DNA of 8,487 nucleotides from Actinomycetota bacterium (GTDB taxonomy: Bacteria > Actinomycetota > Actinomycetes > Mycobacteriales > Mycobacteriaceae): positions 1-8,487 of the forward strand of contig SYAB01000471.1 in assembly GCA_005787665.1 (NCBI GenBank). Reading direction: 5' to 3'. Below, piece after piece: positions 3,410 to 8,487 of the stretch (positions are counted from its first letter, which is position 1; every line of letters begins with the position of its first letter). The position numbers and the translations under genes are program-made. The notes under the pieces are model-generated. The model did not search any database. It was not told where the DNA came from and saw only the letters and a list, made by a program, of their open reading frames with translations.

Positions 3410-4156
3410 TCACGGCACCCGGGCCTGCCCGCACCCGGCGGGGACGCTGGGGCCCCGGGCGAGCGCCTCCCCCAGCGACGGCGTCTTCTGGTCGAGTTGG
3501 GTCACCGGCGGAAGCGACATCTGCACCTCGAACATGATGCTGCCCGCGCCCTTCGCGTCCCGGCACGTCAGCCCGACCCTGCTGCCCGCGCCTGGCCCGA
3601 ACCGCGCATCGAAGGCCGCGCGCACCGACCGCGCCGACACCCGCTGTCCGACTGCGGGTGCGAAGATCGGGCCGAGCACCTCATCGGCCTGCTTGGCCAG
3701 CGCGGTGGCCAGCCCGAAGTACTCCGGCGGCGTCAGACCCGAGCAGGTGCCGTGCGCGTACCACTCGTGGTTCGTCATGAACCCCGAATCCGACATCATC
3801 GCCTTCAGTTCGGCCTGCAGGTCGGGCGGCAGCGGCACCGGGGAGGGCGAGCGTTCGGCGGCCCGCTTGGACACGTTGCAGTACTGCTCGGTGGACGGCT
3901 GCGGCCACAGCCCGTGCAGCACGAAGGCGTCTCCCAGACTGTCGACGTGTCCGGATTTGCAGCCGGAATTGGACGGCTCGACTTTGCAGAGACTGGGACC
4001 CCAGGTCACCACAAGCAGGCTGGAACTGCTGTTCGCCGCCGCCTCCACCGGTCGGGGCCGACGGTCGAGGACGAGAAGGCTGAAGGCGACCGCCGCGGCG
4101 ACGATCACCGCCAGTCCGGCCGTCACCGAGATCACGGTCAGGTCCCCGCGCTTCAT
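3410..4156 (-). CDS. RNase T2 family ribonuclease, membrane-anchored or secreted
   Basis: This is a 248-aa endoribonuclease of the RNase T2 family, which cleaves RNA through 2',3'-cyclic phosphates. One hydrophobic segment at about 7-30 follows a short basic start (MKRGD) and points to export or an N-terminal membrane anchor. There is no lipobox cysteine. The first catalytic block is HGLWPQ at 81-86 and the second is NHEWYAHGTC at 129-138, giving the expected His81, His130, Glu131 and His135. The Lys that precedes the last His in fungal enzymes (Lys108 of RNase Rh) is Ala134 here. Six Cys outside the helix (57, 66, 93, 138, 198, 242) could form three disulfides, fitting an extracytoplasmic location. 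The frame stays open upstream to 4381, but ATG 4156 is preferred because it places the signal anchor at the N-terminus and avoids overlap with the divergent gene. It is probably the first gene of the leftward unit with the P450 and oxidoreductase. Confidence 0.9.
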   Translation of the reverse strand: MKRGDLTVISVTAGLAVIVAAAVAFSLLVLDRRPRPVEAAANSSSSLLVVTWGPSLCKVEPSNSGCKSGHVDSLGDAFVLHGLWPQPSTEQYCNVSKRAAERSPSPVPLPPDLQAELKAMMSDSGFMTNHEWYAHGTCSGLTPPEYFGLATALAKQADEVLGPIFAPAVGQRVSARSVRAAFDARFGPGAGSRVGLTCRDAKGAGSIMFEVQMSLPPVTQLDQKTPSLGEALARGPSVPAGCGQARVP

Positions 4157-4162
4157 ACCGGA

Positions 4163-4180
4163 CGATTCAACAGTGAATCG
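4163..4180. promoter_or_regulatory. Inverted repeat in divergent promoter region, candidate operator
   Basis: The sequence CGATTCAACAGTGAATCG is a perfect inverted repeat with 7-bp arms (CGATTCA/TGAATCG) around a 4-nt centre. It lies in the 69-bp gap between two divergent genes, 7 bp upstream of the RNase T2 ATG. It also covers the position where a -35 box for the rightward promoter would be expected. A dimeric repressor or activator bound here could control both directions. Alternatively, as RNA it would form a 7-bp, 4-nt-loop hairpin next to the RNase T2 start and affect its translation. No regulator gene is present in the window. Confidence 0.45.
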
Positions 4181-4192
4181 ACCCGCTCTGGC

Positions 4193-4198
4193 TACAGT
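4193..4198 (+). promoter_or_regulatory. Putative -10 box for the membrane protein/RT unit
   Basis: TACAGT fits the TANNNT pattern of mycobacterial housekeeping -10 elements. It would place a transcription start near 4204-4206, about 20 nt before the GTG start, enough room for the Shine-Dalgarno at 4210-4217. No clear -35 hexamer is found at normal spacing, which is common in mycobacterial promoters. The inverted repeat sits in the -35 zone. Confidence 0.4.
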
Positions 4199-4209
4199 TG
4201 TGCCGCACG

Positions 4210-4217
4210 AAAGGTGA
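4210..4217 (+). promoter_or_regulatory. Shine-Dalgarno that decides the GTG start at 4226
   Basis: AAAGGTGA closely matches the anti-Shine-Dalgarno complement and ends 8 nt before GTG 4226. An in-frame GTG at 4214 lies inside this motif and would have no ribosome-binding site of its own, so 4226 is the preferred start. Confidence 0.7.
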
Positions 4218-4225
4218 CCGCCCGG

Positions 4226-6316
4226 GTGAACGATGTCGACCGCTGGTTCGACCGAACGGCGCGCACCAGCAGCGCCCCGGTCTCGCTGTACTCCAGTCTG
4301 CTCACCGGTCGGATCTTCGGCTATCTGCGCTACCGGTTGCGGTATCCGCTGCTGATCGCCGCGGTCCGGTTCGCGGTCCACGTCGCGGAGTTCTTCATCC
4401 TGCTGTCCAGCCTGGGCGGGGTCGCCGCCTATGCGGTGATGATGCTGCGGGCCGGCAGCCTGTTCGTCGCCGGCGGCTGGTGGGGCTTGCTGGAGGTCAT
4501 GCGAGAGCGGGTACGAACCTTCGCGCGCGCCGGGCGGAGGGACGCCTCAGAGGCAGAGATCGGCCGCTGGCTGGTCCTCGGGGTGCTCCTGGCCGCGCTG
4601 ACCGTTGCCGTCGGGGCGGTCGTGCTGCTGGTGTTCGGGCCGGCCGGCGATGACCCGATCGCCCGGCTCTACACCTTCCTCATCGTCGTCGAGTTCGCCA
4701 TCGACCTGCCGGTCCGGGTTCTGCATTCCGGGATCTACGCCACCCGGCGCGTCTACAAACCGGCCTGGTCGATGTTCGTACCGATCGTGGTCCAGCTGGC
4801 GATCCTGGCCTGCGGCTTCTATTTCTACCCGACCGTCGCGATCATCGTCGCGATCATCGCCTCCAACGCCCTCGGCATCGGGATCACCGTGCACTACTGC
4901 CTCGAGGTCTACCGGTTGATGGGCCTGCGCCCGCGGTGGTGGCCGCGGGACCTCAGGTTCTGGCGCCATCTGCCGTCGATCCCGCCCCGGCTGGGACTGG
5001 CGACGACACTGTCCGGCCTCAGCATGCGGCTCGACGCGATTCTGGTGATGGCCCTTGTCGGCTTCTACGGCACCGACACCCGGACCTTCGACCTCACCGC
5101 CGGAATGACGAGTTGGGCCCGCATCGACGCATTCCAATTCTTCTATCTGATCCTGCCGTTGTTCCGCGGCACCTATGAGAGCGCGGCGATCTTCTACTTC
5201 GATCTCGTGCGATTGCGCACCATGCCCGCGATCCGGGAGCTTCACCTGGCGTTCTACCGGAAGCTGCTCTGGACGGCGCCGGTGGTGGCGCTCTTCTTCT
5301 GGGCACTGGCCGCGGCACTGGGACTCCTCGTGCTGCACGACATCCCGATCGGCTTCCTGGTTGCGCTCATCCCGCTGTTCGTGGTGCGGAGCCTGATCGG
5401 GATCTATCAGATCCGGCTGTTCGCGGAGGGATACTTCGGCACCCACATCGCCAACTTTGCGCTCCTGGCGGCGCTGCTGTGGCTGGTGTGGCTCAACCCC
5501 AATCCGGCCGGCGATCTGGTCCAGATCACCGCGGCGATGGTCGTCCAACTCCTGGTCCTGATCAACGTCCAGCATCTTCGGGACCGCCGCGACCCGACGT
5601 TGCCCACCCTGGTGCCACTGCGAGACTGGTTGCGTGCGCTGGCCGGGGAGGCCGGCCCCGCCGTGGCCGGGACGATCCGCATCCGGGAATCGATCACACC
5701 CAAACAGCGGGCGGCCGCCGTGGCGACGATGCGGGAGACGCTGGCGGGCCGCGGCCACCTGGCGTTCGGGTCGGCGACGAAACTCCTTTACTACCAACGC
5801 TCGCCGGACGGGGAGGACACCGGCACCTCCCATGTGACCCTCCAGACGATGACCGGCGGTGCGGCTGGACGCGGGCACTGCCTGCCGGCGCCGGCGCCGA
5901 GCGGGCCCGCGGCGCTGGAACATCTCCGGTCCGGACGGTGGTTGCCGGCGAGGGCGGGCGACGACGCCGGTCCGTCCGATAACGAGGCTCTGCGCAGCGC
6001 ATTCCTGCGGATCTTCCCTGACGGGGTCGTCTTCGACACCGAAACCCTCAGTGGCGCAACCCGGATGCGCGCTCTGGACCCGGAGGTGCTGGCCACTGCA
6101 CTGCAGTCCGCCGTCGCGAGCCGGGAGGAGGGACACGACACGATCGTGGTGTCGGACCGCCTGCTCACCCCGGTGTACCTCGGGGGTGTGCTGCGGATGC
6201 TCCTGGTGTTGCCGCCGGATCCCGAACCGGCCCGGCACCGCGAATGGCTCGACACCGTCCGGTCCTGGAACCTCGATGCCGGGAACGCCGTCGCGGGGTC
6301 GGTGGGCCATGGTTGA
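4226..6316 (+). CDS. Polytopic membrane protein with large C-terminal soluble domain, partner of reverse transcriptase
   Basis: This is a 696-aa protein that I do not recognise at family level. Residues 40-449 are strongly hydrophobic, with about 11-12 likely membrane segments near 42-62, 64-84, 115-138, 147-166, 182-202, 204-226, 258-281, 299-315, 347-370, 374-397, 406-424 and 430-449. The layout loosely recalls lipid or polysaccharide flippases of the MOP/MATE superfamily, but this is an impression, not a motif match. The last helix is followed by a basic HLRDRRD stretch at 450-456, so by the positive-inside rule the soluble domain at about 450-696 should face the cytoplasm. That domain is mixed alpha/beta with no motif I can name. 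It contains a Pro/Gly/Ala-rich, probably flexible stretch near 543-585 and ends in an Asp- and Gly-containing tail. The stop codon overlaps the start of the reverse transcriptase gene by 8 bp, so the two are almost certainly co-transcribed and probably translationally coupled. A role as membrane effector or sensor is inference. Confidence 0.85.
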   Translation: MNDVDRWFDRTARTSSAPVSLYSSLLTGRIFGYLRYRLRYPLLIAAVRFAVHVAEFFILLSSLGGVAAYAVMMLRAGSLFVAGGWWGLLEVMRERVRTFARAGRRDASEAEIGRWLVLGVLLAALTVAVGAVVLLVFGPAGDDPIARLYTFLIVVEFAIDLPVRVLHSGIYATRRVYKPAWSMFVPIVVQLAILACGFYFYPTVAIIVAIIASNALGIGITVHYCLEVYRLMGLRPRWWPRDLRFWRHLPSIPPRLGLATTLSGLSMRLDAILVMALVGFYGTDTRTFDLTAGMTSWARIDAFQFFYLILPLFRGTYESAAIFYFDLVRLRTMPAIRELHLAFYRKLLWTAPVVALFFWALAAALGLLVLHDIPIGFLVALIPLFVVRSLIGIYQIRLFAEGYFGTHIANFALLAALLWLVWLNPNPAGDLVQITAAMVVQLLVLINVQHLRDRRDPTLPTLVPLRDWLRALAGEAGPAVAGTIRIRESITPKQRAAAVATMRETLAGRGHLAFGSATKLLYYQRSPDGEDTGTSHVTLQTMTGGAAGRGHCLPAPAPSGPAALEHLRSGRWLPARAGDDAGPSDNEALRSAFLRIFPDGVVFDTETLSGATRMRALDPEVLATALQSAVASREEGHDTIVVSDRLLTPVYLGGVLRMLLVLPPDPEPARHREWLDTVRSWNLDAGNAVAGSVGHG

Positions 6317-7640
6317 GCCCGTCGACATCGACCGCAGTCTGGCAGATCCACGGACCTACGACGCGGTGATCCTGGGGATCTTCACCAAGCGCCAGCAGCG
6401 CGGCTTGGCGTTCACCGAAGCCGCCGACGGGGTGACCTATTTCGAGACCGCCACCAAACGACGCGCCCTGGCCCGGGCGATCGCCAGGAGTATCGCGTCC
6501 GGGCAGTACCGGCCGCAACCGGTCGAACTCTGGTCACTGGAAACCAAGGGCAAGGTTCGTGCCGCCCACATGCCCGGGTTCACCGACCACATCGTCGGGA
6601 CGGCGCTCTACCAACTGCTCACCCACAACGCCCGCTGCTTCGGACTACCCGGGGTCTACTCATACCTGCCCGCGCTGAACAACGTAGCGGCGATGCGGGC
6701 CCTCGCGGCGTTCGTTCGCGAGCACCGCAAGCGGGTCGGGACGACCGGGCCGCCGATGTATGTCCTGCAATCGGATTTCGCGCACTACGGGGATGGTCTG
6801 CCACTCGGGCCCGGCGCGGCACTGTGGCCCATCCTGCGGCAGGTGGCCGCCCTGGGCAGCCCGTCGGGCCGGCTCTCGGAGAATGCCTGGCACCTGATCA
6901 CCGCACTGATCCGTCCGGTGGTGCGGGACTCCGACGGCGCGCAGTTCACCCGACTGCAGGGTGTGCCGATGGGAACCCCCATCGTCCCGGTGCTGTCCAA
7001 TCTGGCCGTGCTGCCGATGGACCGGTCGATCCAGCAGATCGACGGGATCTTCTATGCCCGCTACAACGACGACTTCCTGATTGCCCACCCCGACCTGTCG
7101 GCGTTACGGGAGGCCGACACCCGGATCGACGCGGAACTGGAACCCCTTGGCGTGCAGCGCAAGTCCGCCAAGGAACGCCGAACCGCGCTGAGCGGCAACG
7201 GGATGCCGTCTTCCGAGGACCCCGCCTATCGCGGCGGCAATCGCATCGACTGCCTGGGCCTGTCGGTCAGTCACATCGGGGCCCTGTCGGTGGGTCCGCA
7301 TCGGCTGCGACGGCTGATGGAACGCATCGCCGTCCGGATCGACGGCACCGCGACGGCACTGTGGCCGCTGCCGGTCACCGAACGGGCCCGCCATCTGGTC
7401 GACACCACCAATGTGATGCTCGACGTGTCGAGTCCCTTTGCCGTTCCGGGGCTTTCAGCCCTGCTCGACACGACCGCCGATCGCGGCGTGCTCACCGACC
7501 TCGACCGGCGCATCTCCCGCAAGATCGTTCAGGCCGCCACCGGACGGCCGGGCCTGCGGGGCTTCCGCACCATCCCTCCCCACACGCTGTACGCCGACCT
7601 GGGGCTGGTGTCGCTGGTGCACCTGAAGAACTTGCGGTAG
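6309..7640 (+). CDS. Reverse transcriptase (RNA-directed DNA polymerase), unclassified group
   Basis: This 443-aa protein has the fingers-palm order of a bacterial reverse transcriptase. A KGKVRAAHMPGFTDHIVGTAL block at 80-100 corresponds to the RT1 region of group II-like enzymes. Motif A is SDFAHYGDGLP at 155-165 with Asp156. Motif B is QGVPMGTP at 217-224 followed by LSNLAVLPMD. The catalytic box is YNDD at 252-255. A motif D-like Lys lies at 285 (RKSAKERR), and a CLGLSV strand at 315-320 matches motif E. The Asp156/Asp254/Asp255 triad is complete, so polymerase activity is expected. About 100 residues follow motif E, enough for a thumb but without an endonuclease or recognisable extra domain. 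ATG 6309 overlaps the end of the membrane protein gene. The frame is open upstream to 5859, but that part is antisense-like Arg-rich shadow. I cannot place it in a named RT class. The retron, group II intron and DGR hallmarks I looked for are missing. Confidence 0.93.
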   Translation: MVEPVDIDRSLADPRTYDAVILGIFTKRQQRGLAFTEAADGVTYFETATKRRALARAIARSIASGQYRPQPVELWSLETKGKVRAAHMPGFTDHIVGTALYQLLTHNARCFGLPGVYSYLPALNNVAAMRALAAFVREHRKRVGTTGPPMYVLQSDFAHYGDGLPLGPGAALWPILRQVAALGSPSGRLSENAWHLITALIRPVVRDSDGAQFTRLQGVPMGTPIVPVLSNLAVLPMDRSIQQIDGIFYARYNDDFLIAHPDLSALREADTRIDAELEPLGVQRKSAKERRTALSGNGMPSSEDPAYRGGNRIDCLGLSVSHIGALSVGPHRLRRLMERIAVRIDGTATALWPLPVTERARHLVDTTNVMLDVSSPFAVPGLSALLDTTADRGVLTDLDRRISRKIVQAATGRPGLRGFRTIPPHTLYADLGLVSLVHLKNLR

Positions 7641-7680
7641 CCGCCATCGTCCTGTTTCATTCAACGCGGAGGCGCGGATC

Positions 7681-7694
7681 CCGCCCGCGGGCGG
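7681..7694. repeat. Perfect GC palindrome in the RT-tgt gap
   Basis: CCGCCCGCGGGCGG is a perfect 14-bp palindrome 40 bp after the RT stop codon. GGAT at 7676-7679 and ATCC at 7698-7701 flank it as outer complementary arms, although the bases between do not pair symmetrically. It may form the first of two hairpins at the 3' end of the RT transcript or act as a protein-binding site. Confidence 0.4.
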
Positions 7695-7699
7695 CCCAT

Positions 7700-7742
7700 C
7701 CGAAGGATCACAGAGGCTGCGGCTTTCGGTCCCTCATTTTTT
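7700..7742 (+). terminator. Candidate intrinsic terminator after the RT gene
   Basis: CCGAAGG at 7700-7706 pairs with CTTTCGG at 7723-7729 (7 bp, one G-U). The 16-nt loop can itself form CAG/CTG at 7711-7713 and 7717-7719. Six T residues follow at 7737-7742 and four more at 7745-7748. The 7-nt distance between stem and T-run is longer than ideal, so termination may be partial. The gap at 7641-7772 holds no gene that I can see. Confidence 0.5.
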
Positions 7743-7772
7743 CGTTTTCCCCCGCGCCCTCCCCTGCCCAGG

Positions 7773-8487
<715 letters not shown>

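What the first reader, a model, noticed from the sequence alone, without database searches (positions are those of the whole stretch)
4226..7640. Two-gene cassette: polytopic membrane protein coupled to an orphan reverse transcriptase
A 696-aa protein with about 11-12 membrane segments and a cytoplasmic-looking C-terminal domain overlaps by 8 bp an RT with a complete catalytic triad. The pair has its own promoter-like region, a terminator-like end and no transposase, intron RNA or retron features. Known defence-associated RTs come as compact RT-plus-partner units, often with membrane or effector partners, so this could be an uncharacterised RT system. One model is that the RT makes or binds a nucleic acid that gates the membrane protein. 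Association is seen directly; function is inference.
Basis: partly seen in the sequence, partly recalled or inferred. Interest (0 to 1): 0.75.

Follow-up and report, generated by a model that had tools for sequence, protein, structure and literature searches.

The report
RT, RNA, transporter and RNase cassette
Some mycobacteria, and rarely other bacteria, share a patchily inherited four-part gene set: a reverse-transcriptase-like enzyme, a small folded RNA, a transporter-like membrane protein and a secreted RNA-cutting enzyme; its job is unknown, and I found no description of this combination.

Summary
In the window and 46 RT-bearing loci from genomes, wherever the contig is long enough, the same unit appears. 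(1) A divergent RNase T2 gene with intact catalytic residues lies upstream (43 of 46 loci; 3 are cut by contig ends). (2) The 696-aa membrane protein has a MOP (MATE/Wzx/MurJ) fold plus a C-terminal alpha/beta domain of unknown family. (3) The RT overlaps it by 8 bp; it scores far below true members of the PADLOC and NCBIfam RT classes, and its sugar-gate position is Gly in 220 of 221 fetched relatives. (4) A ~95-nt structured RNA, window 7668-7762, follows the RT. It covaries strongly, and a covariance model found it in an alphaproteobacterial cassette not used for training, at that cassette's other end. The 'terminator-like end' is this RNA. In 248 Mycobacterium genomes, 27 have RT and membrane protein, always together and with T2 beside them; 6 have T2 alone. 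Gene neighbourhoods differ between clades. Most likely this is an RT-ncRNA complex coupled to a membrane transporter, perhaps a conflict or defence system; that function is inference. A bolder reading, that it makes and exports RNA, is not excluded.

The parts
3410..4156 (-). RNase T2 gene (248 aa): N-terminal hydrophobic segment (anchor or signal, by eye), HGLWP and HEWxxHGTC motifs (H81, E131, H135), six conserved Cys
   Evidence: Pfam PF00445 E 5e-15; sequence match to RNase MC1 and RNase I in the PDB; the three catalytic residues and six Cys invariant in 15 of 15 aligned; divergent next to the membrane gene in 43 of 46 loci and in 28 of 28 cassette copies of 27 genomes (coordinates; one copy with a 671-bp gap)
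4157..4225 (.). 69-bp divergent interval between RNase T2 and membrane gene
   Evidence: 19-228 bp in 43 of 44 measured cassettes, 671 bp in L045; blastn similarity in 68 of 861 possible pairs (the 42 gaps over 30 nt)
4226..6316 (+). polytopic membrane protein, 696 aa: MOP-superfamily fold (about residues 18-458, window 4277-5599)
5603..6295 (+). C-terminal alpha/beta domain of the membrane protein (about residues 460-690), predicted cytoplasmic, unknown family
   Evidence: secondary structure, pLDDT mostly 76-96 per block; no significant sequence relative in PDB or Pfam; its fold was not searched alone
6309..7640 (+). RT-fold polymerase, 443 aa; overlaps the membrane gene by 8 bp
6774..6776 (+). 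RT motif A catalytic Asp (D156)
   Evidence: 221 of 221 aligned relatives
6789..6791 (+). G161 at the sugar (steric) gate position, D+5 of motif A
   Evidence: Gly in 220 of 221 aligned relatives, Thr in 1; aligns without gap to the second Phe of GsI-IIC 'DLEKFFD'
7065..7073 (+). RT motif C NDD (N253 D254 D255)
   Evidence: DD in 221 of 221; N in 217, G in 4
7668..7762 (+). RT-associated structured RNA (ncRNA), about 95 nt, three-way junction
   Evidence: consensus fold and covariation; covariance model R1, window hit 99.4 bits (a training row)
7668..7677 (+). ncRNA closing helix P1, 5' strand (pairs with 7751-7761; one bulge in this window)
   Evidence: changes on both sides at 5 of 10 P1 pairs; fold
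7681..7694 (+). ncRNA hairpin P2
7702..7735 (+). ncRNA hairpin P3 with inner hairpin capped by a UGCG (UNCG-type) loop in this window
   Evidence: 4 of 8 outer pairs with changes on both sides; inner hairpin paired in all cells of 46 rows
7736..7750 (+). U-rich single-stranded segment between P3 and P1 (candidate template; inference)
   Evidence: unpaired in the consensus; two U positions invariant and five nearly so in 46 rows
7751..7761 (+). ncRNA closing helix P1, 3' strand

Best explanation
This is a four-part, patchily inherited cassette: a secreted or membrane-anchored RNase T2, a MOP-fold transporter-like membrane protein with a cytoplasmic domain, an RT-fold polymerase and a ~95-nt three-way-junction RNA. 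Shown here by sequence: the four parts, their strict linkage, their conserved active-site residues and the RNA structure. Inferred: the RT binds the RNA and sits, as a ribonucleoprotein, on the cytoplasmic domain of the membrane protein whose gene it overlaps. It copies the U-rich single-stranded segment of the RNA into an A-rich product. That product is DNA, or RNA or mixed, because the residue that normally excludes ribonucleotides is lost. The product or its synthesis state then drives the membrane protein, and the RNase acts on RNA at the outer face. The most likely purpose is a conflict function such as anti-phage defence, with the membrane protein and RNase as the effector side.
For: Strict linkage: membrane protein next to RT in 45 of 46 loci and T2 next to it in 43 of 46, all misses at contig ends. 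27 of 248 Mycobacterium genomes have RT and membrane protein, all 27 with a T2 match beside it (26 above Pfam's cut-off; the T2 of G157 is broken); Fisher p about 1e-30. Co-divergence r 0.93 (RT-MP), 0.88 (RT-T2), 0.91 (MP-T2), 0 of 2000 permutations as high. RNA: 77 covarying cells against 18.9 in shuffles, 0 of 500. The model found the RNA in a cassette not used to build it (L046, 46.2 bits, E 3e-8). Over 22 genomes it found one RNA per cassette in 15 of 15 (16 copies), none in 6 of 6 T2-only genomes and none in G157 with its broken RT (only the 150 best first-look candidates per genome were scored). Gate position. Fold matches. A U-rich template in a structured ncRNA is described for DRT9 (PMC12483538, passages). 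T2 occurs alone in 6 genomes, but RT plus membrane protein never without T2 in the 27, as expected if T2 is harmless outside and the pair needs it.
Against: No experiment; transcription of the RNA and RT-RNA binding are not shown. Folding of the window RNA alone is not significant (z -0.7). The U-rich run after P3 could be a terminator in the mycobacteria, though P1 closes beyond it. The flanking families shown are mainly metabolic, not a defence island. No match in the plasmid, phage and viral collections searched (the single viral RNA-motif match looks like chance). An extracytoplasmic RNase is not a known component of RT defence systems (recalled). MOP proteins are exporters or flippases (recalled), not known as gated pores.
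Confidence: 0.42

Rival explanations
1. Export system: the polymerase makes an RNA or mixed nucleic acid on the ncRNA template, the MOP protein exports it (or a lipid- or protein-linked form), and RNase T2 trims or recycles it outside. It would be a secreted-polymer or signalling system, not defence.
For: Known MOP transporters and flippases move substrates outward (recalled). The sugar-gate position is Gly in 220 of 221; the analogous Phe of MMLV RT (F155) is a gate against ribonucleotides (PMC8857657, one passage), and a natural gate change makes mycobacterial DinB2 use rNTPs (PMC4176160, abstract). An RNase gene accompanies every cassette whose contig reaches far enough.
Against: No known transporter of this fold moves nucleic acid (recalled). 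Gate loss alone does not prove rNTP use. Other residues of the pocket were not modelled.
Confidence: 0.2
2. RNA scavenging: T2 degrades external RNA, the membrane protein takes up products, and RT plus ncRNA act as sensor or regulator.
For: T2 looks extracytoplasmic by its N-terminal segment and conserved Cys and exists without the pair in 6 of 33 T2-bearing genomes.
Against: Catalytic Asp residues invariant in 221 of 221 are not needed for a mere regulator; importers of this fold are unusual (recalled).
Confidence: 0.1
3. The conserved downstream element is only a transcription terminator or 3' UTR element of the RT operon.
For: P3 hairpin followed by a U run resembles an intrinsic terminator; window RNA alone folds no better than shuffles.
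Against: About 60-115 nt are conserved between the window and mycobacterial cassettes with different neighbours. P1 pairs sequence before P2 with sequence after the U run, with compensatory changes. In L046 the RNA lies between two T2 genes at the far end of the cassette.
Confidence: 0.08
4. The RT is a member of an already classified retron, DRT or group II intron class, and the rest is neighbourhood.
For: RT fold; PADLOC generic RT and Drt9 matches of about 60 bits; structure matches to GsI-IIC and DRT9.
Against: Drt9 proteins of the same genus score 545 and 583 bits. NCBIfam group II, retron, Drt2 and Drt3a models score 32-60 bits against cut-offs of 200-390. Gate residue and motif NDD set it apart.
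Confidence: 0.08

Closest known systems
DRT9 (defence-associated RT with poly-U templating ncRNA)
   Different: 58 PADLOC bits against 545 and 583 for Drt9 of the same genus; accompanied by RNase T2 and a MOP protein; Gly at the gate position. The two RNAs were not compared directly
Retrons (RT, ncRNA, effector)
   Same: compact RT-ncRNA-partner unit
   Different: NCBIfam St85 retron model 32.5 bits against cut-off 235; RNA lies after the RT in 46 of 47 cassettes; msDNA features not examined
Group II intron and G2L4 RTs
   Different: 59.5 bits against cut-off 300; no Rfam intron RNA in the window; gate Phe of GsI-IIC replaced by Gly
MOP superfamily (MATE, WzxE, MurJ)
   Different: no sequence family match; extra C-terminal domain; partnered with an RT
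RNase T2 family (RNase I, RNase MC1)
   Same: catalytic motifs and family match
   Different: in the 248 Mycobacterium genomes, 28 of the 34 T2 matches lie in this cassette

Membership tests
DRT / UG-Abi RT classes | class-specific profile score comparable with true members | tested here: not met
   PADLOC best 60.6 (generic RT), Drt9 58.4, UG17 42.9 (best 25 of 57 shown); Drt9 controls 545 and 583. Models of other class schemes (e.g. myRT) were not available
DRT / UG-Abi RT classes | experimentally shown anti-phage activity | not testable with these tools
   no experiment
DRT with ncRNA (DRT2, DRT9 type) | conserved structured ncRNA next to the RT | tested here: met
   no Rfam match at gathering threshold and only chance-level ones below it
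Retron | retron RT family score | tested here: not met
   NF038233 32.5 bits against cut-off 235; NF038237 and NF042941 13-14 bits
Retron | msr-msd RNA and branched msDNA | not testable with these tools
   only that the RNA follows the RT in 46 of 47 cassettes
Group II intron | intron RNA and maturase score | tested here: not met
   no Rfam hit in the window; TIGR04416 59.5 against cut-off 300
MOP superfamily | MOP transporter fold | tested here: met
MOP superfamily | transport or flipping activity | not testable with these tools
   no experiment
RNase T2 | family score and catalytic His/Glu/His | tested here: met
   Pfam 56.5 bits against cut-off 26; residues invariant in 15 of 15

The most novel reading that the evidence does not exclude
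An RT-fold enzyme that has lost its sugar gate makes RNA (or an RNA-DNA copolymer) on a dedicated U-rich RNA template, and hands it to a MOP-type transporter for passage across the membrane, with an RNase on the far side as processor, recycler or safety device: a dedicated nucleic-acid synthesis-and-export machine in bacteria.
Probability: 0.15. Interest if true: 0.97.

Novelty: new variant of a known kind. Interest (0 to 1): 0.84.

Why it matters
RT-ncRNA systems have repeatedly turned out to do unexpected nucleic-acid chemistry. This one has an RT, an RNA and partners that I found in no library or paper searched. It is the only case I met that couples an RT to a transporter fold and an extracytoplasmic RNase, so it makes 'what does a free-standing RT do at the membrane' directly testable. 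The lost sugar gate gives a sharp biochemical prediction (rNTP use). The covariance model and the gene signature allow it to be found elsewhere.

Tried and rejected
Defence-island context: 86 flanking proteins from 23 loci were scanned as set A9, chosen by me from the 134 candidates (24 loci). Pfam: first 25 of 107 families shown, mixed and mainly metabolic. PADLOC: first 25 of 59 families shown, each matched by one protein; JetB and JetC at L040, UvrD-type helicase (GajB, RTasHel models), PD-T4-6 and mad6, which I took as generic matches without following them. Not a general island, as far as shown.

Plasmid, phage or virus carriage: no RT match in plasmids or phages; no confirmed relative in viral contigs. 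One viral contig matched the RNA core pattern (L123), but the covariance model gave 18.6 bits (E 0.0016 in that contig alone) and no cassette protein was found in it, so I judged it chance.

RNA between T2 and membrane gene: rejected; gaps of 19-228 bp (671 in L045), similarity in 68 of 861 possible pairs. These gaps are shorter than the 400-nt downstream stretches, so the contrast with 893 of 946 is partly one of length. The stretch just after the L046 RT does not fold unusually (z 0.04); the model finds the RNA elsewhere in L046.

Single-sequence folding of the window RNA is not significant (z -0.7); L002 (-3.6) and L036 (-3.0) are. The case rests on covariation and on the independent hit.

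Weak model matches: L109 21.9 bits (E 0.04) after the broken RT of G157, L106 17.3 bits (E 0.55) in a T2-only flank; 12.8 bits (E 0.3) in L086 among 11 loci with other RTs or lone T2.

The C-terminal domain of the membrane protein: no significant Pfam or PDB sequence relative (one PDB hit at E 0.69).

Gate controls are limited: my pattern for other RTs required F or Y at D+5, so it could not show another residue. A plausible motif A with F was seen in 7 of 8 RTs of other kinds; L086 was not resolved and L082 was not examined. The 221 relatives are those of the proteins fetched (lists capped at 120), not a random sample.

Dropped rows: tree and Mantel used 44 of 47 cassettes (L004, L011, L033 lack T2, or T2 and membrane gene, at contig ends). 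Mantel does not correct for species relationship. Neighbour clustering picked genes mechanically and missed T2 in several loci that the profile then found. Genome searches scored only the best few first-look candidates per genome (4-6 for proteins for the RNA), so absences are not exhaustive.

Print: searches listed no paper on this combination. Passages of PMC8934634, PMC8867640 and PMC13275509 did not mention it; a term search of PMC9508834 for the gate found nothing. The UG/Abi survey (PMC9226505) is not held, so prior mention cannot be excluded.
Full report
WHAT IS IN THE WINDOW. The window holds a gluQRS-like fragment (1-801 +; tRNA synthetase class I domain), a carboxynorspermidine-synthase-like dehydrogenase (955-2166 -; below that model's cut-off), a P450 (2176-3390 -), an RNase T2 (3410-4156 -), the 696-aa membrane protein (4226-6316 +), the 443-aa RT (6309-7640 +) and a tgt fragment (7773-8345 -). 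The host is probably a mycobacterium by its closest homologues; no genome is held for it.

THE PAIR IS REAL. Searching one genome per species gave 46 loci encoding an RT relative: 42 at 63-77% identity from mycobacteria or records named only Mycobacteriaceae, Actinomycetes, Actinomycetota or the like (L003 is labelled Bifidobacterium, probably a mis-binned contig), 3 Rhizobiaceae (52-54%) and one other alphaproteobacterium (L046, 44%). The membrane gene is directly upstream in 45; the 46th (L033) begins inside the RT. Judged by profile position the overlap is 8 bp in 39 of 44 cassettes, though in many the start codon used cannot be fixed. In 248 Mycobacterium genomes drawn evenly, 29 had an RT match at E<=1e-5; 27 are strong, and the two weak ones score as Drt9 (545 and 583 bits in PADLOC). 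The membrane protein is found in the same 27 and in no others. In one of them (G216) RT and membrane gene lie on different contigs. Elsewhere strong matches are rare: 3 of 298 genomes of the order (three Mycobacterium genomes already seen), 1 of 249 of the rhizobial order, 1 of 318 of the alphaproteobacterial class and 1 of 359 of its phylum, each of these last three being the seed genome. The protein search also named Hoeflea and Thiorhodovibrio.

THE THIRD PART: RNase T2. Clustering the flanks showed one gene family that stays with the pair while other neighbours change: a divergently transcribed RNase T2, present in 43 of 46 loci. L004, L011 and L033 are cut before it. In the same 248 genomes PF00445 matches 33 (32 over the cut-off): all 27 cassette genomes, where each of the 28 cassette copies has T2 beside the membrane gene (coordinates), and 6 others. 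In those six no cassette membrane gene or RT was found genome-wide or in the fetched flanks. In one (G214, L107) T2 sits in the same tgt-T2-P450 order as in the window, so the pair is missing there while T2 remains. Fisher p about 1e-30. Catalytic His81, Glu131, His135 and six Cys are invariant in 15 of 15 aligned; the three rhizobial proteins have Tyr instead of the first His of the second motif. An N-terminal hydrophobic segment and conserved Cys suggest that it acts outside the cytoplasm (inference).

THE FOURTH PART: AN RNA. The 400 nt after the RT stop give blastn matches in 893 of 946 pairs of cassettes, against 68 of 861 for the (shorter) T2-membrane gap. Many of the 893 share a neighbour gene, but between the window and mycobacterial cassettes in other contexts the similarity is confined to about 60-115 nt, and to the rhizobial ones to 32-33 nt at 91%. 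Alignment A11 (window plus L001-L045) folds into a three-way junction. With the 23-pair consensus, 96.0% of cells pair, 11 pairs have changes on both sides and 77 cells covary (shuffled mean 18.9, 0 of 500 as high); sliding the partners by 1-3 columns drops pairing to 43-54%. The structure was derived from the same alignment, so part of the slide contrast is expected. A hand-extended 28-pair version gives 94.1% pairing, 12 pairs and 83 cells. Frequent G-U pairs, which would be C-A on the other strand, place the structure on the + strand. The independent test is the covariance model: it found the RNA in L046, which was not in the alignment, at 4805-4907 (46.2 bits, E 3e-8), with a re-paired P1 and the same UGCG-capped core. 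There it lies between two tandem T2 genes, upstream of the membrane gene, so it is not an RT terminator. Over 22 whole genomes the model finds 16 copies in 15 genomes, one per cassette (G211 has two cassettes); none in 6 of 6 T2-only genomes and none in G157, where RT and T2 frames are broken (for G157, where a 21.9-bit trace remains). No Rfam family reaches its threshold (for the cassette stretches searched, 129).

INHERITANCE. RT, membrane protein and T2 distances correlate at 0.88-0.93 over 44 cassettes (0.77-0.85 within mycobacteria). On a joint tree the tgt neighbourhood needs 2 changes and a second neighbourhood 1, while 21 cassettes have other neighbourhoods. Among these is a 15-member clade whose flanks mostly differ from one another, apart from a few shared genes. 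So the unit moves or is rearranged as a block but is old within clades (inference). One genome (G211) has two copies.

MECHANISM. Shown by sequence: parts, linkage, active-site residues, RNA fold. Inferred: an RT-RNA complex at the membrane. The closest worked example of a U-rich RNA template that I saw is DRT9 (PMC12483538, passages), and this is the basis for the A-rich-product prediction. T2 may be kept without the pair, but the pair was not found without T2; this fits T2 as an outer-face component that is harmless alone. I rank conflict or defence first, export second; neither is tested.

LIMITS. Training rows match the RNA model by construction. Genome searches score a limited number of candidates. 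The context sample is small and its family lists were cut at 25. Literature absence rests on the listed searches in an open-licence library.

Noticed in passing
window about 8346-8487: The tgt reading frame on the minus strand appears interrupted upstream of 8345 compared with a relative (L107 7663-8901): sequencing error or broken gene.
   Followed up: no
L040:2-5027: Wadjet genes JetA (cut by the locus end), JetB and JetC lie directly next to the cassette (PADLOC); no JetD match among the three genes tested on the other side.
   Followed up: partly
L078, L079: Two mycobacterial genomes (G158, G087) carry Drt9-type RTs (545 and 583 bits) and no strong match to this cassette.
   Followed up: partly
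L109 (G157) about 4451-8921: A decaying cassette: RT frame ends early and T2 is spread over two frames while the membrane gene is full length; the RNA has only a 21.9-bit trace. Described only.
   Followed up: partly
L110 (G211) 6557-8653: In one of two cassette copies of a genome the membrane gene is split over two ORFs.
   Followed up: no
L046:3865-5803: Two tandem RNase T2 genes instead of one, with the RNA between them.
   Followed up: yes
L045:4690-5362: 671-bp gap between T2 and membrane gene, large enough for an extra gene.
   Followed up: no
L024:1604-1714: SAM-IV riboswitch in the flank, unrelated.
   Followed up: no
L003: Contig labelled Bifidobacterium breve MAG carries a mycobacterial-type cassette close to the window's: probably mis-binned.
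   Followed up: no
P0345-P0348: Four remote RTs (29-34% identity to L046) have GDD in motif C instead of NDD; the residue at D+5 of motif A is Gly in three and Thr in one. Their neighbours are unknown.
   Followed up: partly
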